A stretch of DNA of 64,000 nucleotides, taken from positions 1-64,000 of the forward strand of contig JAPWJY010000008.1 of assembly GCA_028283765.1 (NCBI GenBank). The letters run 5' to 3'. Origin of the DNA: Parvibaculaceae bacterium. Its GTDB lineage: Bacteria; Pseudomonadota; Alphaproteobacteria; Parvibaculales; Parvibaculaceae. Of this stretch, positions 729-9,546 are shown one piece after another. The notes beneath the pieces were generated by a model. It was given only the letters and a program-made list of their open reading frames with translations, did not search any database and was not told the DNA's origin. Positions within the stretch are counted from its first letter, which is position 1, and each line of letters starts with the position of its first letter. A program made the position numbers and the translations under genes.

Positions 729-1025
729 AGAGCTGGCGCGGGATCGCGAACCACGCCGCGCTTGCTGACATCAGCCAGAACCGTAAACCCGCCGAACAAA
801 CCCTGCATCTCGGCACCGAACGCCTTCGCGCCATTCGCGTTTCCTTCAACCTCAATGAGCGCTGCAAGCCTCAAGGCGCACCAACGACAGTGCGGCAACC
901 TGCATGGCACCAGTCACCCGCCGCCCGACCGCGATCGGGTCGATGCGGTGCCCGTTGGAGGTCCCGCTCTTAAGACGAAAGTCGTACGGCAACTGCCGAG
1001 AGACCGGCGCGATGATGACAGGTCG
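725..1025 (-). pseudogene. decayed gene remnant of unknown family
   Basis: Two minus-strand frames join into one protein-like stretch. The upstream frame (about 1020 down to 855) reads 'RPVIIAPVSRQLPYDFRLKS' and continues to 'VGRRVTGAMQVAALSLVRLE'. It then runs into a stop, while the frame beside it continues 'LAALIEVEGNANGAKAFGAE' to a stop at 725. A single-base change near 855 would fuse them. The upstream frame is itself preceded by a stop at about 1024, so the 5' part of the gene is missing. I do not recognise the family. The 3' end overlaps the GNAT start by 4 bp, as translationally coupled genes often do, which suggests the two once formed an operon. Confidence 0.35.
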
Positions 1026-1068
1026 TTAACGCACTTGGCGGCATTGTCGGGCGAAACGGAGCCCGCAT

Positions 1069-3051
1069 GTGAGACAGCGATTGCGAAGCTGGATGACGTT
1101 CTCGGCCGAGCCGAACGTCCTCCTCGCCCAATATGGAGAGCTCAAGCGGCAAGTGCCGCTGCTTTATACGCTGCTCGTGCTGAACGCAGCCGCGCTCGCC
1201 TACACACACCGCCATCTTGCTCCCGTTGAGCTGACGATCGGCTTTACCGTCCTCCTCTCCACGATTTGCGGCTGGCGCGTGGTGCGTTGGCTATCCGCGC
1301 CCGGCGCTGACATCGTGACAGCCGTCGAGGCGAAGCGTGAGCTCGTCCGCACCACCGTTATCGCAGGCGTGATGAGTGTCGCCTTCGTAAACTGGTCCTT
1401 CCTTCTCGATCAATATGGAGGCCCCGCGGAGCGCGGGCATGTCGCGTTGTTTATTGCGGTGACCGTGATCGGTTGCATCTTCTGCCTGGTTACTCTGCCG
1501 CAGGCCGCGATGGTCGTCACCGCCGCCGTGACGCTGCCTTACCTCGTATACTATATCCTACGCGGGAATGAGGTGCTCGTCGCCATGGCGCTGAACATCG
1601 CACTCGTCACCGGTGTCATGATCCGCGTCCTGCTGAATAACTTTGCCAGGTTTGAGACGCTGATCCTGTCGAAGGACACGTTGGCAGCCAAGCAGCGCGA
1701 GGCGGAGCGGCTTGGCGATGAGAATGCGCTCCTCGCGCACACCGATGCGCTCACCGGGCTCCCCAACCGACGACATTTCTTCGCCGAGCTCGATCGGCGG
1801 CTTGGTGCAGCAAAGCTCGCCGGCGATCGCGTGGCGGTCGGCGTCCTTGATCTCGACCGGTTCAAGCCTGTCAATGACACCTTCGGCCACGCCGTTGGCG
1901 ACCGATTATTGATGGCCGTTGGGCGACGGTTGGCCAAGGTCGCCGGCGATGGCATGTTGCTGGCTCGGCTGGGCGGAGACGAGTTCGGCATCCTCATCAC
2001 GCGCGACGTCGGTCGTGCCTGCGAGCTAGGCCAGGCAATCTGCGATCGGCTGGCCGTGCCATTCTCGGTAGATGACCATTCCGTCGCGATCGGCTGCTCG
2101 GCCGGGCTCGCGATATTTCCTGACGCGGGGGAAACGGTGCACGAGTTGTTCGACCGGTCGGATTATGCGCTCTATCACGCCAAGTCGACGGAGCGTGGCA
2201 GCTGCGCCGCCTTCTCCCTGGAACACGAGACGCAGATACGTTCGGAGCGTGCGATCGAGGCTGCGCTGCAGTCCGCCGATCTCGAAGACGAATTGCATGT
2301 GCGGTTCCAGCCAATCTTGTGCACGCGGACGCTCGCCGTGCTCGGCGTCGAGGCGCTTGGCCGCTGGACCAGCCCAACGATAGGCGCGGTGAGCCCGGAT
2401 CGATTCATCACCACGGCCGAGCGCCTTGGCATTATCCATTCCATCTCTGCGACTCTCTTCGGCAAGGCACTCGCCGAATTTTCCGAAATGCCCCAGGCGA
2501 TCGGTCTGTCGTTCAACCTGTCGGCGCTCGATATCGTGTCGCAACCGACCGTCGCTCGACTGATCGAGATGATCGAACGTAATGGCATTGATCCAAAGCG
2601 CATCACGTTCGAATTGACCGAAACCGCGCTGATGCAAGATTTCGACGCGGCGGTGCGAGGCATAAGGTCACTGCGCGCTCTTGGAAGCCGCATTGCGCTG
2701 GACGATTTCGGCAGCGGTTACTCGAGCTTGGGCTATCTCCGCCGGTTGCCGCTCGACAAGGTCAAGGTGGATCGCACCTTCGTCGCCGATATGGACGAGG
2801 CGTCGGGGCACAACATCCTCACCGCTATCCTTGGCTTGTGTCAGACGCTGGAACTCGACTGCATCGTCGAGGGAGTGGAGACCGATGCGCAACTCGCCTC
2901 GTTGCGGGAGCTTGGCTACCGACTGGCGCAAGGCTACCTGTTCGCCGAACCGATGCGCCTGGACACGTGCCTGGTGTGGATGCGCCGCCACACGGCCGGC
3001 ACGGGCAACCAAGGCGATCGTCTCAGGCCGCAGCTGCGCATAGTTGCCTAG
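1069..3051 (+). CDS. membrane GGDEF-EAL cyclic-di-GMP protein
   Basis: This 660-residue inner-membrane signalling protein has six probable transmembrane helices in residues 29-190 (roughly 29-47, 53-72, 95-115, 124-144, 146-164, 170-190). A short coiled coil (200-225) leads to a GGDEF diguanylate cyclase domain with an intact GGDEF motif at 302-306, then an EAL phosphodiesterase domain with EAL at 428-430. The EAL catalytic signatures 'DDFGSGYSSLGYL' and 'VEGVET' are present, so both cyclase and phosphodiesterase activity are possible. No RxxD inhibitory site sits five residues before GGDEF, so product inhibition there is unlikely. The membrane part matches no MASE domain I can name, so the input signal is unknown. 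The GTG at 1069 has a purine-rich stretch (acggag) upstream; the ATG at 1093 (MTFSAEPN) is the alternative. Confidence 0.92.
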   Translation: MRQRLRSWMTFSAEPNVLLAQYGELKRQVPLLYTLLVLNAAALAYTHRHLAPVELTIGFTVLLSTICGWRVVRWLSAPGADIVTAVEAKRELVRTTVIAGVMSVAFVNWSFLLDQYGGPAERGHVALFIAVTVIGCIFCLVTLPQAAMVVTAAVTLPYLVYYILRGNEVLVAMALNIALVTGVMIRVLLNNFARFETLILSKDTLAAKQREAERLGDENALLAHTDALTGLPNRRHFFAELDRRLGAAKLAGDRVAVGVLDLDRFKPVNDTFGHAVGDRLLMAVGRRLAKVAGDGMLLARLGGDEFGILITRDVGRACELGQAICDRLAVPFSVDDHSVAIGCSAGLAIFPDAGETVHELFDRSDYALYHAKSTERGSCAAFSLEHETQIRSERAIEAALQSADLEDELHVRFQPILCTRTLAVLGVEALGRWTSPTIGAVSPDRFITTAERLGIIHSISATLFGKALAEFSEMPQAIGLSFNLSALDIVSQPTVARLIEMIERNGIDPKRITFELTETALMQDFDAAVRGIRSLRALGSRIALDDFGSGYSSLGYLRRLPLDKVKVDRTFVADMDEASGHNILTAILGLCQTLELDCIVEGVETDAQLASLRELGYRLAQGYLFAEPMRLDTCLVWMRRHTAGTGNQGDRLRPQLRIVA

Positions 3052-3572
3052 CCCGCGGGGCATTCAGCTCGCGATGTCGACAAGCACGAGGTACTCGATG
3101 TCATGCCGGTGCGCTGGCGGGTCGTGCGGCAGGTCTGGCGGAGGTACAGCTCCCGCAGTGTGCGATGATGCGAAGATCGTCCATGCGCGGTTTCGGGGCG
3201 CTATCCTGTTCAGCGAGTGCGGCCGCGACAATCGCGGGCAGTGCATCCTCGGCCCGCTCCCGAAGCATCGCCCGCCGACAGATCGGCACGTAGCTATTGC
3301 GGCATATTACGGATCATCCGCTGCATGTCCGTGGAGAGGTCCTGCGAAACCCGCCAGGACCGTGAAAAGCGGTAAACCGGAAGATCATGGGCCAACCTCG
3401 TCATCGCGCACCAATCGTATATCAATATTTTGCAGCCCGGACCGAAACCACGAAAGCTTTTTTCACGGGTCCGCTAGACCTTGGTCTAAGTGTCAACTGA
3501 TACAATCACGTTTTAATTTCATCGCAAGCCGGCGGCTACAGAACCGATCCAAAGACGGAGCAGCGAGCAAAT
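3052..3572. other. intergenic region, possible decayed minus-strand coding traces
   Basis: No intact gene is evident over these 521 bases. On the minus strand, frames around 3289-3101 ('AEDALPAIVAAALAEQDSAP', 'MDDLRIIAHCGS') and 3246-3064 ('HDIEYLVLVDIAS' at the end) look protein-like and would join across one frameshift, so an eroded gene is possible but unproven. The last 150 bases turn AT-richer, as expected for the promoter of the STAS-like gene that follows. Confidence 0.3.
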
Positions 3573-3938
3573 ATGTTCACGATGGAGGTCGATGAGGACC
3601 AAAAGCTGATAAGAGCCCGCATGTCGGGCTTCATGGATCCAGCTGAGGTGCTCGAATTCTCGCAGCAGGAGCAACAGGCTGTTACCGACATGGGATGCAA
3701 TTCGGGTGACTTCATATTGCTGATCGATACGGACGGCGCCGTCATCCAGTCCCAAGAAACTGTAGCGAAATTTATTGAAATCATGGCAAGCTCACAGCTT
3801 AAGGCGCGCAAGATCGCCGTCGTCCGCAAAAGTTCTCTAAGCCGGATGCAGACCCAACGTATTTTGTTAATCAGGGATAATGCAGCAATCTTTCCAAGCG
3901 TTTTGGAGGCGGAAGCTTGGTTATTATCGGTGGACTAG
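3573..3938 (+). CDS. STAS/SpoIIAA-like protein
   Basis: This small cytoplasmic protein of 121 residues looks like a SpoIIAA/STAS-like domain: an N-terminal two-strand hairpin ('MFTMEVDEDQKLIRARMSGF'), a long helix, a central strand 'FILLIDTDGAVIQSQE', a helix, and the terminal pattern 'AAIFPSVLEAEAWL' typical of that fold. STAS-like proteins usually act as phospho- or partner-switch modules rather than enzymes, and nothing indicates the partner here. It is clearly paralogous to the protein rebuilt from 4826-5032 plus 5871-6083: both have '(L/V)(I/V)D', 'QS.ET' and a shared 'AEAWL/AETWL' end. The receiver gene begins 168 bases downstream on the same strand, which suggests one signalling locus. 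The ribosome-binding site is weak (gcagcgag). Confidence 0.75.
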   Translation: MFTMEVDEDQKLIRARMSGFMDPAEVLEFSQQEQQAVTDMGCNSGDFILLIDTDGAVIQSQETVAKFIEIMASSQLKARKIAVVRKSSLSRMQTQRILLIRDNAAIFPSVLEAEAWLLSVD

Positions 3939-4105
3939 AGGTTGGTCGTGTCAACTCGACATTGGTACCGATCTCCGCAACGGCGCATACCCGGCGTAAT
4001 CGTCTTCGTCTTACTGCCTCGACCTTAGGCGAATTTTCGCGCGGGGCGCTGCGGATCAACCTTATGGCAACCGTCAGATGTCATATCTGCCGATGAAAGT
4101 AGCTT

Positions 4106-4525
4106 ATGCGTCATAGCCGCGTTCTAATCATTGATGACTCCGTCACAATCAGAGCGATGGTGGAGGAGTTGCTCGCGCGCCACGGCAATGCCCACACCAT
4201 CGCGACGGCTTCCGATGGCGATATGGCGCGTGCGCTGATCAGGGAGTTCAGACCGACTGTTATTACGCTCGATCTTAATATGCCCGGGATCGACGGTCTG
4301 GCTCTGCTCGATGAGCTGAGAGATCAGCCGCATGCGCCAATCGTCGTTGTGTCTTCCGCAACGACGGACGGCTCGGCAGCGACCAAGGAAGCGCTGGCAC
4401 ATGGCGCAGACGCCTGTTTCGACAAGTCGAAGATTGTGACGGAAGCCTCGCGCTTCATTCGCGTCCTCAAGCGAGCGTCAATTAAGAAACTGCGGCTGCC
4501 CGCATCAAGCGGACAACGGAGATGA
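4106..4525 (+). CDS. single-domain response regulator (CheY/CheB-like receiver)
   Basis: A stand-alone receiver domain of 139 residues. The acidic pair is D10-D11, the phospho-acceptor is D56 in 'VITLDLNMPGIDG', the conserved Ser/Thr lies in 'VVVSSATT' (S83/S84) and the switch lysine is K107 in 'CFDKSK'. The 'VVSS' and 'DKS' pattern is closer to CheB-type receivers than to classical CheY, yet there is no methylesterase or DNA-binding domain; the 25-residue tail is basic. It should therefore pass a phosphoryl signal to a protein partner. Its stop overlaps the start of the next gene (ATGA at 4522-4525), so the alpha-CTD-like mini-protein is translationally coupled to it. No histidine kinase is present in the window, so the phosphodonor is unknown. 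Confidence 0.9.
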   Translation: MRHSRVLIIDDSVTIRAMVEELLARHGNAHTIATASDGDMARALIREFRPTVITLDLNMPGIDGLALLDELRDQPHAPIVVVSSATTDGSAATKEALAHGADACFDKSKIVTEASRFIRVLKRASIKKLRLPASSGQRR

Positions 4526-4713
4526 CGGTTCCATTGTCCGCTATCTGTTTTCCAACGCGTTTGATCCGTTCATTGCGGGAGGCAGACATTCACACAGTTG
4601 ACGATTTGCGCGCGACAGTGCCGGCGAGGTTGGGGCAGATCCCCGGCATCGGCACCGCAAGCCTCAAGATCATACTCGAGGTGATCGATGTGAAGTCTGG
4701 ACGCGCCAACTGA
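4522..4713 (+). CDS. mini-protein resembling the RNA polymerase alpha C-terminal domain
   Basis: This 63-residue protein lines up over nearly its full length with the helix-hairpin-helix C-terminal domain of RNA polymerase alpha: 'LIRSLREADIHTVDDL' corresponds to the first two helices and 'LGQIPGIGTASLKIILEVI' to the HhH element (NLGKKSL in E. coli alpha). The DNA-contact arginine of alpha (R265 position) and the lysine after the hairpin glycine are not conserved, so UP-element binding may be lost or changed. No other domain is attached. It starts inside the stop codon of the receiver gene, so the two are made together. A role as a free HhH adapter that binds DNA or RNA polymerase under control of the receiver is my inference. 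It could instead be an unrelated HhH protein. Confidence 0.65.
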   Translation: MTVPLSAICFPTRLIRSLREADIHTVDDLRATVPARLGQIPGIGTASLKIILEVIDVKSGRAN

Positions 4714-5032
4714 TCGATTGCCAATAGTGACGAGATGATGAAGCGGGCAGCACAGCTCGACACGTTCACTTTTGGCGGTGAAGAGCGACATCACTTCTTA
4801 ACAGACGAACATTACGGCGAAGCAAATGATGACAGCTGACGTCCCTCCCCCGACGCCCCGATCAACAGGTTCCGCGCATGGAGTCCTACGCACGGAGATC
4901 GATCACCAAGCAAACATTATCCGCGTTTCCGGTTTCGGTTTGTGGCCCGAGTGGTACGCCCGCGCGCACTTCGAGGAACTCGAACGTACACTCCGACGTG
5001 CGCGAACAAGTGGATCGCCCGTTAGAGTCCTA

Positions 5033-5868
5033 AGGCCTGTGGACATTTAGCGCATTGCGATTTTCAATGCCGCGAGGTTAATCATGGCGCGATAGCTTTC
5101 GTCTGTTTTATCGTATCTTGTAGCGATACGCCGGAATGTTTTCAGGCTGCAGAAGAAGTTCTCGACCAAGTGCCTCCAGCGATAGGCATGGAAGTCGCAA
5201 TCGATCTTTTGTTTCCGGTTAGATTTGGGAGGGATCACCACTACGGCGCCTCTTTCGTTCAGTTCGGCACGCAACCAGTCAGCGTCGAAGGCCTTGTCGC
5301 CGAGGAACATGTCGAATTCGACGTCCTGAATTAGCGGTTTTACCCCAATGAGATCGTGGGTCTGCCCAGGCAGCAAGATGAAACGTGCCAGGTTCCCCAA
5401 CGCATCCACCAGCGCGACGATCTTCGTGGTCAGGCCGCCCCGCGATCGTCCGATCGCCTGACGATGAGTCCCCCCTTGCGCCGGTGCCCTGCTGGTGGAC
5501 CCGGACGATCGTGCCGTCGATCATGGCATACTCAAAGTCGCGGTCGCCCGATAATCGCTCAAACAGCATGTCGAAGACCCCATTCACCGCCCAACGTCGG
5601 AACCGCCGAAAGTTGGAGTTCCAGTTGCCGAAATGCTCCGGCAAGTCTCGCCATGGCGCTCCAGTCCCGGCAATCCACAAGACCGCGTCCAGGAATCTCC
5701 GGTTGTCTGCGGCCGAACGGCCTCGATCCCCAACTTTACCGGGAAGCACAGGCCAAACCCGTCCCCATTGCTCATCGCTCAATCCGTGTCGTTCCAAGCT
5801 GGCGCTCCCTTCGCCAGTCTTGAATCCGATTTGCCGACAAAAGGGAATCCCCTAATGTCCACACGCCT
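5033..5868 (-). mobile_element. IS5-family insertion sequence (IS427-like group), 836 bp
   Basis: Near-perfect terminal inverted repeats bound the element: AGGCCTGTGGACATT on the left and, reversed, AGGCGTGTGGACATT on the right (one mismatch in the first 15 bases). Both ends are flanked by TA (5031-5032 and 5869-5870), the usual target duplication for this group. One two-frame transposase fills the inside on the minus strand. The insertion lies exactly inside a STAS-like gene. Confidence 0.93.
5047..5797 (-). CDS. IS5-family DDE transposase in two overlapping frames
   Basis: Frame A (5797 down to about 5470) carries the N-terminal DUF4096-type domain ('LSDEQWGRVWPVLPG', 'GTGAPWRDLPEHFGNW') and the first catalytic aspartate in 'YAMIDGTIVRVHQ'. 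Frame B (about 5475 down to 5047) continues with 'QAIGRSRGGLTTKIVALVDA', the second aspartate in 'FLGDKAFDAD' and the glutamate in 'VENFFCSLKTFRRIATRYDK'. The DDE triad is therefore complete across the two frames. The switch falls at an AAGGGGGG run near 5477-5484, a plausible slippery site. The net change is +1 (or -2). This is the two-ORF layout known for IS427-group elements, so the shift is probably programmed, though a small indel cannot be excluded. The product would cut and paste the element. Confidence 0.88.
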
Positions 5869-6083
5869 TAGTCGACATTCGAGAGGCCGCGGTACAGAGT
5901 CCAGAAACCACGCGATGTCTCGGCGAAGCAACAGATCGAATCTATAAGCTTGGCGATCGCGTCGCGATCGTCGTCGCCTCAAGTTTCCTGAAACTTCAAA
6001 TGCGTCGCGCGACAGATGCGAGCATTCACGAGATCTTTATATCGTTCTCTGCCGCCGAGACGTGGCTGCGCGCATGGTCTTAG

Positions 6084-6290
6084 TGCACCGGCGCGGCGGT
6101 CGCCGCCCATATATGGGCAGCAACTCGTCGAGCCGGCCGGTGGATACTGCTCGATACGAATCAGGAGACCTGCGAGCCACGCTTGGGGATCGACACATCG
6201 TGGCGCAGTCTGGATATGCATGAAAAGGGCCATGGCGGGCTGGCCGGCGCCGGCCAGATCCACAGAGCAGCTAGGCGTTCCGTTCGAAAG
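6084..6290. other. short intergenic stretch, nothing recognised
   Basis: I see no gene between the end of the split STAS-like gene and the ssb remnant. Open frames on both strands are short, lack ribosome-binding sites and have no protein-like character. Confidence 0.4.
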
Positions 6291-6560
6291 TTAGCTTGGC
6301 CATGCGACTGCTGGCGGAACTTGCCGCAGCCGAGGGAGGTCCACCTCCTCGGCGATGATCCGGATGATCTCGACGCCGAGGCAGTCGATATTCTCCTGAT
6401 CGGTCCACCGCCTGCAATGGATGCGGCCACGGACCGTGACTTCTGGCCCTTCTTAACATAGTACGCGACCGTCTTGGCGATGCCGTTGGAGCAGGTGATC
6501 CGATGTCACTCGGCGCCGTTGAGACGGCAGTGTTTGCTGAGGCATTGAGAACGGCCAACG
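6291..6560 (-). pseudogene. ssb: decayed single-stranded DNA-binding protein gene
   Basis: The minus strand encodes the core of an SSB OB-fold with two lesions. Reading down from about 6515, the frame gives A-E-stop-HRITCSNGIAKTVA and then 'YYVKKGQK'. In SSB the stop position (TGA at 6508-6506) is the conserved tryptophan of 'EWHR', so this is a TGG to TGA change. A one-base deletion after 'KKGQK' then shifts the frame, which continues 'TVRGRIHCRRWTDQENIDC' and 'LGVEIIRIIAEEVDL' to a TAA at 6293-6291. The order matches the SSB pattern 'WHRVTCFNG...KKG..V.V.GRIH...WTD'. The N-terminal third is not recognisable. It was probably a plasmid- or island-borne ssb copy, now dead. Confidence 0.75.
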
Positions 6561-6807
6561 CGAGATCGTCCGCTTCTGCCGCGAGCCGACGTTCACCGGT
6601 GTACGCGGGAATGGCTGCTAAGTCCCACTTGGCGACCAACGGTGCATCGACCTGCTTACCCGGCAGACGCGGGCAGCGTCGATGAATGGGCGTCCAAAGT
6701 TGGGGAGCGCAGGGAAGGGATTGAGTGTCGCTTTGTGTGAAGGATATCGGGCATCGACAGATGTACGATATCCTCCAAAGCAGGAAGCCGCGGCCCCGCG
6801 TGCTGAG
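6561..6807. other. intergenic sequence beside the IS91-type element
   Basis: No gene is recognisable. The notable feature is an inverted repeat, GGATATCG and CGATATCC separated by 16 bases, at about 6743-6774, close to the 3' end of the IS91-type transposase frame. IS91 elements end in subterminal hairpins rather than inverted repeats, so this may mark the terminus, but I cannot define it. Confidence 0.3.
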
Positions 6808-8222
6808 CTATGGGGATTTCGGTTTTCGTCGCGCTATGGGTCGGATGCACCGTTGGGCGGGACGTGCTTCTGCGGGTCGGAGCATGGCCTGGGAGGGCAG
6901 CGTGCCGTGTAAATGTCGGCCTGGATTGGGGCTTGAGATGGTGGCCGGCGCGACTGGCGCGGTCGCCGGCGCGAGCAGCATCGTGGCCGGAAGCATACGA
7001 CTTTCGGCGCGCGGTGAGGTCGAGCCATGCCGAGTCATGACGTGGTCATCTCGGTCGGTGGTGGCGTAAGGCGGTGCGCGCGGCTGGCGCCAGCGCTCGA
7101 AGGCCTCGATGACAACCATGTGCCCGCCGCAGCAGGGGCATGGCGGGCGGATATCGGTCGGTTCGTCGGGCGCAGCATCGGGCGGCGGTGCGACGCCAAG
7201 CAACTGGCGGGCGTGTTCGAGATGGGCCTTGCGGGTGGCGCTGGCGAGCAAGCCGTAATGGCGGATGCGGTGGAACCCGCGCGGCAGGACGTGCAGCAGG
7301 AAGCGACGGATGAACTCGTCTGTCGCCAGCGTCATGGCCTGCTGCCGGTCGGCGCCGCGCGGCGGTAATCCTTGTAGCGCATAGTGACGCCGGCCTCGTC
7401 GAAGGCGAGCAGGCGGCTGTTCGAGATCGCGACCCGGTGGGTGTAGCGCGACAGATAGGCGAGCACCGCTTGCGGCCCGGCGAACGGCGGTTTTGCGTAG
7501 ACCACCCAGTTCTTCTTTCTGACCGGGGACAGGTGCCGCAGGAACGCACGCCGATCGGTCAGGTGCGCGAGGGCACCGTAGAAGGCGAGGCGCCCCGCCG
7601 CGTGGAGCGCCATCAGCCTGGTCAGGAACAGGCGGCGGAACAGCTTGCCCAGCACGCGCACCGGCAGCAGGAACGCCGGCCGCGAGGATATCCAGCGCGA
7701 GCCGTCGCGAGCGATGCCGCCACCGGGCACGATCATGTGGACATGCGGATGATGCGTCATCGCCGATCCCCATGTGTGCAGCACCGCGGTGATACCGATG
7801 CGCGCGCCGAGGTGCTTTGGGTCGGCGGCGATCGTCAGCATCGTCTCGGATGCCGCCTTGAACAGCAGGTCGTAGACCAGCGCCTTGTTGTGGAACGCGA
7901 TGTCGGCGACCTCGGCGGGCAGCGTGAAGACGACGTGGAAGTAGCCCACCGGCAGCAGGTCGGCCTCGCGCTCGGCGAGCCAGGCGCGCGCGGCGGCGCC
8001 CTGGCACCGGGGACAATGCCGGTTGCGGCAGCTGTTATAGGCGATCCGCCAATGCCCGCAGTCGGTGCAGGCCTCGACATGACCGCCCAGCGCGGCGGTG
8101 CGGCAATGCTCGATCGCCGACATGATCTTGAGCTGATGCAGGCTCAGATGCCCTGCATGCGCGGCCCGGTAGGCGGGACCGGCGGCGCGGAAGATGTCGG
8201 CGACCTCGAGGGAGGCACGCAA
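6808..8222 (-). pseudogene. IS91-family HUH (Y2) transposase, frameshifted
   Basis: The N-terminal zinc-binding domain is seen as 'ACTDCGHWRIAYNSCRNRHC' plus 'PRCQ'. The HUH metal site is 'HHPHVHMIVPGGG', and the two-tyrosine nicking motif is 'YLSRYTHRVAISN' (Y-x3-Y). All three are diagnostic of IS91-family rolling-circle transposases. After 'GVTMRYKDYRR' the frame is lost at about 7358-7363, where one base appears to be missing. The neighbouring frame continues 'DRQQAMTLATDEFIRRFLLH' and the conserved tail 'GFHRIRHYGLLAS', with 'CPCCGGHM' near the end, to a stop at 6808. The start is a TTG at 8222 directly after the recombinase gene. As read, the product would stop after 296 residues and lose its C-terminal domain, so I class it as a pseudogene unless the shift is an error. 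Confidence 0.85.
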
Positions 8223-8229
8223 CGCTGCG

Positions 8230-9136
8230 TCAACCGGCCGGCGTCTTGCCCTCCATCAGCGCCATCAGCCGGTCGAGCGGGCCGGTCACGGCGCATGGAT
8301 CGTGCGGGTGGCGACCTTGGTGTAGAGCGCGGTCGTCTCGAGCTTGCTGTGCCCGAGCAGCACCTGGATCACGCGGATATCGACGTCCTGCTCGAGCAGG
8401 TGAGTGGCGAAGCTGTGCCGCAGCGTGTGCGGGCTGACGCGCTTGCGGATCCCGGCCGCCTCGGCCGCCTCGCAGACGGCGCGGTGGAGCTGCCGGTCGA
8501 GATCGGGTCGGTGTAGCTGCGCCCGGGAAACAGCCAGCCGTGCGGCAGCAGGACACTGCGCCGCTTGCCCTCGCGCCACCACAGCCGCAGCAGCTCGAGC
8601 AGTTGCGGCGACAGCATGGCGTTGCGGTCCTTGCGCCCTTTGCCCTCCTCGATGCGGATCAGCATCCGCTTGCTGTCGATATCGTCGGCCTTGAGGTGCG
8701 CGACCTCCGACACGCGCAGGCCGGCGCCATACGCGACGCCCAGCGCGGCGCGGTACTTGATGCCCGGCGCCGCCTCGAGCAGCCTTGCCACCTCATCGAC
8801 GCTCAGCACGTCGGGGAGCTTGCGGGGACGATGCGCCAGCACCAGCCGCCGCGCCAGATCAGGTCGTTCGAGCGTCACGTCGAACAGGAAGCGCAGCGCC
8901 GACACCGAGCCGTTGATGGTGGACTCGCTGACTCCGTGCTCGCGCTGATGAAGCTGGAAGCGCCGCACATCCTCGGCGGTTGCGGTGTCGGGCGAGCGCC
9001 CTAAAAACGCCGCGAAGGCGCGAACGTGGCGGACATAGTCATGCTGGGTCCGCGCCCGCATCGAGCGCATCGCCATGTCGTCCAGCATCCGCTGACGCAG
9101 CGGGGTGACGGGCCGTTCGGTCGGTTGAGTCGCCAT
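8230..9136 (-). pseudogene. tyrosine recombinase of the IS91-type element, two frameshifts
   Basis: A site-specific tyrosine recombinase with an N-terminal SAM-like core-binding domain ('MRARTQHDYVRHVRAFAAFL') and a catalytic domain whose residues are all present: the first arginine in '[16 protein letters not shown]', '[15 protein letters not shown]', and '[16 protein letters not shown]' with the nucleophilic tyrosine. Reading it through needs two corrections. One base is missing in the C/G run near 8492-8496 ('GRSYTDPIS' to '[15 protein letters not shown]') and one near 8288-8292 (after 'TRTIHA' to '[16 protein letters not shown]'). The start at 9136 (MATQPTERP) is preferred over the longer frame because gaggaactcctc lies just upstream. 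That site is inside a hairpin (9139-9165), so translation may be restrained. It precedes the transposase, probably in one transcript. Confidence 0.85.
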
Positions 9137-9138
9137 GA

Positions 9139-9165
9139 GGAGTTCCTCTCGTTGAAGGGAACTCC
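9139..9165 (-). promoter_or_regulatory. hairpin covering the recombinase ribosome-binding site
   Basis: GGAGTTCC (9139-9146) and GGAACTCC (9158-9165) form a perfect 8-bp stem around an 11-base loop. On the minus strand the 3' arm contains the purine-rich Shine-Dalgarno region two bases before the ATG at 9136. Such sequestration is a common way for mobile elements to limit recombinase synthesis. It might instead be the subterminal hairpin of the element end. Confidence 0.5.
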
Positions 9166-9546
9166 ATCGTCCGTCACCGCCTCCATGCGGGCCAAACCTC
9201 AGCGAGGGCACGCTACCTCACCACCAGCACCATTGCCGCGCAGCGGCTTCGTGCTGTGGGTCTTGCCGAGCGCTGCTGCGCCGAAACTCCTCCGACGCTT
9301 CGTCGAGGAAGACGTAAAGGGCTGCGATCCGGCCGTCACGTACTATGATGACATCCCACCCCCGTACCGCCCCGATCTGCGGATAAAGCTGTGCATCAAG
9401 CGGGCATTATCCCCAGAACACCCGAATCGCAGCCGGTGCCGGCGTTTCATGGCTGACTTTTCCCCAGGCGCCCGGCCCGTCTCCGGTGCGGGATTCCCCT
9501 GATCGGCTGAGCTGCAACTTATCCACAGCTCCATAGCCGCAAGACA
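9166..9546. other. intergenic region between the mobile element and glnK
   Basis: No gene is supported. A plus-strand frame (to 9502) with text such as 'TYYDDIPPPYRPDLRIKL' is open but has no start signal and no family I recognise. The right end holds the glnK terminator. This is the likely junction between accessory DNA on the left and core chromosome on the right. Confidence 0.35.

What the first reader, a model, noticed from the sequence alone, without database searches (positions are those of the whole stretch)
4522..4713. Free-standing alpha-CTD-like mini-protein translationally coupled to a receiver
A 63-residue protein with only the helix-hairpin-helix fold of the RNA polymerase alpha C-terminal domain begins in the stop codon of a single-domain response regulator (ATGA). 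The DNA-contact arginine and the lysine of the hairpin are not conserved, so it may bind RNA polymerase partners rather than UP elements. Stand-alone domains of this kind are rarely annotated and easily missed because of length.
Basis: partly seen in the sequence, partly recalled or inferred. Interest (0 to 1): 0.65.

Follow-up and report, generated by a model that had tools for sequence, protein, structure and literature searches.

The report
Stand-alone polymerase alpha-tail-like mini-protein
A tiny gene overlapping the end of a signalling-receiver gene appears to encode a protein shaped like the DNA-binding tail of RNA polymerase's alpha subunit, but other free-standing tails of this kind sit next to quite different genes, so its tie to the receiver is so far a single, unreplicated case.

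Summary
ORF 4522-4713 (63 aa) overlaps the receiver's stop (ATGA). It scores above Pfam's cut-off for PF03118, the RNA polymerase alpha C-terminal domain (25.7 bits, E 9.6e-6). It matches T. thermophilus alpha-CTD (1doq, E 1.3e-4) and folds as helix-hairpin-helix (single-sequence AF2, pLDDT 72.5). The genome has one rpoA plus this copy. One claim is wrong: the UP-contact arginine (E. coli R265) is kept (R13); N294 and K298 are lost. The receiver is CheB-like; its relatives in the Sphingomonas-MAG family have no alpha-CTD beside them. Free-standing PF03118 mini-proteins occur elsewhere beside other partners: a TonB receptor and PCuAC, an unknown ORF (GTGA overlap), a GGDEF-EAL gene, Bradyrhizobium plasmid genes. 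The five relatives aligned keep R265 as R or K and lose N294, K298 and the acidic 261 residue. So this is a rare but known kind of small protein in an atypical, IS-riddled signalling cluster. Most likely it is a coupled, weak DNA- or RNAP-associated HhH adaptor; the receiver partnership is a one-genome inference. New member of a known kind, modest interest.

The parts
4522..4713 (+). Free-standing alpha-CTD-like (PF03118) mini-protein, 63 aa; R13 = E. coli R265, G44 = G296, S47 = S299 kept; G42 = N294, A46 = K298, I50 = E302, C9 = E261 changed
4106..4525 (+). Single-domain CheB-like receiver, 139 aa; D10/D11, phospho-acceptor D56, S84 and K107 present
   Evidence: Pfam PF00072 E 1.3e-20; best NCBIfam match CheB N-terminal part, 97 bits, far below the full-length cut-off; residues read from the translation
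4522..4525 (+). ATGA start/stop overlap; GGAG (4518-4521) abuts the ATG with no spacer
   Evidence: sequence
4509..4541 (+). Inverted repeat GCGGACAA...TTGTCCGC around the overlap; possible hairpin holding the start site (fold of 4480-4560: z -2.0, 7 of 200 shuffles as stable)
3573..3938 (+). SpoIIAA/STAS-like protein, 121 aa; weak Pfam match E 0.041, under cut-off; single-sequence fold pLDDT 46.5, not usable
4826..6083 (+). Second STAS-like gene (28% identical to the first over 118 aa) split by an insertion sequence
5033..5868 (-). IS4/IS5-type insertion sequence, 836 bp, flanked by TA on both sides, interrupting the second STAS-like gene
1069..3051 (+). GGDEF-EAL protein, 660 aa; its 65% identical relative in genome G646 lies directly upstream of another alpha-CTD-like gene

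Best explanation
It is a free-standing member of the RNA polymerase alpha-CTD family (PF03118), the short second cistron of a receiver/alpha-CTD pair inside a probably horizontally acquired signalling cluster (GGDEF-EAL, STAS-like, CheB-like receiver, alpha-CTD, broken STAS-like). Shown: family match by sequence, HhH fold by prediction, the overlap, atypical composition, and the existence of other free-standing members beside other genes. Inferred: translation is coupled to the receiver, because the SD-like GGAG abuts the ATG and a possible hairpin encloses the start. The protein then acts as a small HhH adaptor near promoters. It keeps the arginine used for minor-groove contact, but having lost N294, K298 and the 261 acidic residue it binds DNA weakly and does not replace alpha-CTD on UP elements or sigma. 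It probably works through a protein partner, of which the receiver is the nearest candidate.
For: PF03118 above cut-off; one of only two PF03118 places in the genome; phmmer to 1doq, E 1.3e-4; HhH model with T. thermophilus alpha-CTD as Foldseek rank 2, prob 0.98, TM 0.66, 35% identity. Five free-standing relatives keep R265 as R or K and lose N294, K298 and E261; all five pass the PF03118 cut-off. Overlapped or tightly packed starts recur: L116 GTGA; L118 starts 11 nt inside the upstream gene's end and stops 2 nt before the next gene. Cluster GC3 of 0.56-0.76 against 0.72-0.85 in 11 reference genes of the window.
Against: No close homologue: none at E <= 1e-3 in 40 family or 385 class genomes, none in plasmid or viral collections. 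Codon usage gives no positive coding signal. The structure was folded from one sequence (pTM 0.48), and Rad51-type HhH domains match as well as alpha-CTDs do. Nothing here tests binding, expression or a receiver contact.
Confidence: 0.48

Rival explanations
1. Split output of a two-component pathway: the phosphorylated receiver binds the mini-protein and the pair acts on RNA polymerase or a promoter, with the HhH as a detached output domain.
For: ATGA overlap and immediate neighbourhood; phosphorylation residues of the receiver present; retained R265.
Against: Receiver relatives have no alpha-CTD beside them; free-standing alpha-CTDs sit beside unrelated genes; 4-nt overlaps are common in bacterial operons (general knowledge).
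Confidence: 0.18
2. A general HhH nucleic-acid-binding peptide (Rad51-N/HHH_5-like) with no link to transcription.
For: HHH_5 scores 23.7 bits, close to PF03118; Rad51 N-domains match the model as well as alpha-CTDs.
Against: PF03118 scores higher and passes its cut-off while HHH_5 does not, here and in the relatives scanned; the best sequence matches in the PDB are RpoA chains.
Confidence: 0.2
3. A decaying remnant of a larger gene or of a receiver-alpha-CTD fusion split by a frameshift, now functionless.
For: A neighbouring gene is broken by an insertion sequence and the region holds several mobile elements; atypical codon usage; no close homologue.
Against: The domain is complete and open; the 70-72% identical receiver L004 ends at nearly the same place without a fused domain; no fusion seen among the receiver loci read.
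Confidence: 0.14

Closest known systems
RNA polymerase alpha subunit C-terminal domain (RpoA CTD, PF03118; T. thermophilus 1doq)
   Same: Same family by profile, same predicted HhH fold, gapless alignment, R265, G296 and S299 kept
   Different: No N-terminal domain or linker; N294, K298, E302 and the acidic 261 position changed. UP-contact roles of R265, N294 and K298 are from PMC5101437
Free-standing 'DNA-directed RNA polymerase subunit alpha C-terminal domain-containing' proteins, e.g. Bradyrhizobium plasmid proteins WP_256470647.1 and QRI73759.1
   Same: Small non-RpoA proteins with PF03118 over cut-off
   Different: Different neighbours, no receiver seen beside them; WP_256470647.1 is longer (186 aa)
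Single-domain CheB/CheY-type receivers in the family of Sphingomonas MAG L004
   Same: Receiver 38-72% identical to the relatives read
   Different: Those relatives have no alpha-CTD gene beside them

Membership tests
RNA_pol_A_CTD (PF03118) | Profile score above the curated cut-off | tested here: met
   25.7 against 23.8 bits
RNA_pol_A_CTD (PF03118) | Compact helix-hairpin-helix fold as in solved alpha-CTDs | tested here: met
   AF2 pLDDT 72.5; 1doq prob 0.98; VIA Z 6.5-7.8, rmsd 2.0-2.6 over 57-61 residues to alpha-CTDs. Rad51 N-domains tie, so the fold alone does not discriminate
RNA polymerase alpha subunit (RpoA) | N-terminal assembly domain in the same chain | tested here: not met
   63-aa ORF; separate intact rpoA at C3:1902249
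UP-element-binding alpha-CTD | Contact residues R265, N294 and K298 (PMC5101437) | tested here: not met
   R265 kept; N294 to G42 and K298 to A46
UP-element-binding alpha-CTD | Measured binding to AT-rich upstream DNA | not testable with these tools
   needs purified protein
Two-component response regulator (neighbour gene) | Receiver domain with phospho-acceptor site | tested here: met
   PF00072 E 1.3e-20; D10/D11, D56, S84, K107 in the translation
Receiver/alpha-CTD functional pair | Adjacency or ATGA overlap conserved in relatives | tested here: not met
   No alpha-CTD beside receiver relatives; none of the free-standing alpha-CTD relatives examined lies beside a receiver of this kind

The most novel reading that the evidence does not exclude
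A two-part response regulator in which the DNA/RNA-polymerase-contacting output is a separate alpha-CTD mini-protein made in step with its receiver; more broadly, a scattered class of operon-embedded free-standing alpha-CTDs that keep R265 but lose N294 and K298 and tune transcription by competing with, or bridging to, RNA polymerase.
Probability: 0.13. Interest if true: 0.7.

Novelty: new member of a known kind. Interest (0 to 1): 0.32.

Why it matters
Alpha-CTD is the standard docking point for bacterial activators. A free copy made beside a signalling protein could decoy or redirect activators. Even without the receiver link, the shared signature of the free-standing copies (R265 kept; N294, K298 and the 261 acid lost) is a simple testable lead on what detached alpha-CTDs do. 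As it stands it is a rare, overlooked small protein, not a new system.

Tried and rejected
Close homologues of the mini-protein: none in plasmids or viral contigs; one weak phage match (E 0.8). Receiver relatives in viral contigs: none. Alpha-CTD beside receiver relatives: none, except a 206-aa protein with a C-terminal alpha-CTD about 1.3 kb downstream of a Nitrospira receiver (L028), too far and too different to count. Alpha-CTD beside GGDEF-EAL relatives: only G646 of 10 genomes. Programmed -1 frameshift fusion: I saw no classical slippery heptamer in the 12-codon shared open stretch (read by eye). Promoter/terminator scan: no sigma-70-like site, terminators not above shuffles. STAS-like 1 fold from a single sequence: unusable. 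A consensus-like alpha-CTD query of my own in plasmids returned only ordinary rpoA copies among the annotated rows. Literature: no paper on free-standing alpha-CTD proteins found in the open library. A deeper alignment for folding and a complex prediction were not possible under the tool's sequence rule.

Full report
OBSERVATION. The ORF at 4522-4713 and the receiver at 4106-4525 are present and share ATGA. Pfam places the 63-residue product in RNA_pol_A_CTD (25.7 bits, E 9.6e-6, cut-off 23.8), ahead of HHH_5 (23.7 bits, below its cut-off of 27). In the whole genome only rpoA and this place match PF03118. In the PDB its best sequence matches are RpoA chains, first the T. thermophilus alpha-CTD, E 1.3e-4.

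FOLD. A single-sequence AlphaFold2 model has pLDDT 72.5, pTM 0.48 and helices at 12-20, 26-36 and 45-59. Foldseek ranks 1doq second (prob 0.98, TM 0.66, 35% identity), with many alpha-CTDs in the list but no match below E 0.001. A second aligner gives Z 6.5-7.8 to alpha-CTDs, but Rad51-type N-domains score equally. The fold therefore says HhH; the sequence says alpha-CTD.

RESIDUES. The alignment to E. coli and T. thermophilus alpha-CTD is gapless through the hairpin. N294 becomes G42 and K298 becomes A46. R265, N294 and K298 are the UP contacts named in PMC5101437. G296 and S299 are kept; E261 becomes C9. Five free-standing relatives (L116, L118, L133, L141, L142) show the same pattern: R or K at 265; H, Q, S, G and G at 294; no K at 298; no acid at 261. 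The genome's own RpoA keeps R265, N294, K298 and E261.

RELATIVES. No close homologue was found in 40 family genomes, 385 class genomes, plasmids or viral contigs. Of the 385 class genomes I picked out 26, besides this one, listed with two or more PF03118 matches. Most second matches were rpoA pieces, parts of longer proteins or below the cut-off. Three genomes (G178, G276, G327) hold free-standing ORFs under 100 aa over the cut-off, about 1%. In G178 the ORF lies between a TonB receptor and a PCu(A)C copper chaperone, starting 11 nt inside the receptor gene and stopping 2 nt before the next. In G276 it starts with a GTGA overlap on an ORF without Pfam match. Bradyrhizobium plasmids carry others, one annotated as an alpha C-terminal domain-containing protein. 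In the family of the lichen Sphingomonas MAG (398 genomes), G683 and G646 carry an alpha-CTD with a C-terminal coiled-coil-like tail.

THE RECEIVER. It is CheB-like, with the phosphorylation residues present. Its closest relative, in Sphingomonas MAG L004/G420 (70-72%), ends at nearly the same place and has no alpha-CTD downstream. That genome shows no PF03118 match at all, not even rpoA, so it is incomplete and genome-wide absence cannot be judged. Nineteen further relatives from the same family have none in the 3-9 kb read. The pairing is seen in one genome only.

CLUSTER. Upstream lie a GGDEF-EAL gene and a STAS-like gene; downstream a second STAS-like gene is split by an 836-bp IS with TA on both sides; the joined flanks read as one 139-aa frame. 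An IS91-type element and an integrase follow at 7.0-9.2 kb. GC3 and codon scores of the cluster differ from 11 other genes of the window, pointing to horizontal acquisition (inference). In G646 the 65% identical GGDEF-EAL relative is followed 65 nt later by an alpha-CTD-like gene and then a CHASE4-MCP gene; the other nine GGDEF-EAL relatives lack it. This is the only partial synteny found, and it was noticed after the fact.

MECHANISM. Coupling is inferred: GGAG abuts the ATG without spacing, and an inverted repeat encloses the start (z -2.0, 7 of 200 shuffles as stable). I favour a small HhH adaptor with weak DNA contact through R13, acting with a protein partner. I give the receiver as that partner 0.18, because neither gene's relatives keep the pairing. 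Codon usage gives no independent coding support, so expression must be shown first.

TAXON.

Noticed in passing
window 5033-5868: 836-bp IS4/IS5-type element with TA on both sides splits a STAS-like gene (4826-6083); the flanks read as one 139-aa frame.
   Followed up: yes
L142 (G646) 2275-6715: GGDEF-EAL relative (65% identical) followed 65 nt later by an alpha-CTD plus coiled-coil-like gene, then a CHASE4-MCP chemoreceptor gene.
   Followed up: partly
L118 (G178) 781-3768: Free-standing alpha-CTD packed between a TonB receptor and a PCu(A)C copper chaperone, a possible copper operon.
   Followed up: partly
L116 (G276) 2853-3475: Free-standing alpha-CTD starting with a GTGA overlap on an ORF without any Pfam match.
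   Followed up: partly
L141 and L142: Alpha-CTD joined to a C-terminal coiled-coil-like tail in two genomes of the Sphingomonas-MAG family.
   Followed up: no
L122 and L124: An identical 600-aa protein with an N-terminal alpha-CTD in two genomes of different families (G177, G264; the latter is 10% contaminated).
   Followed up: no
window 4509-4541: Eight-base perfect inverted repeat (GCGGACAA/TTGTCCGC) around the ATGA junction.
   Followed up: partly
window 7024-9183: IS91-type transposase and tyrosine recombinase, about 82% identical to Mesorhizobium plasmid copies.
   Followed up: no
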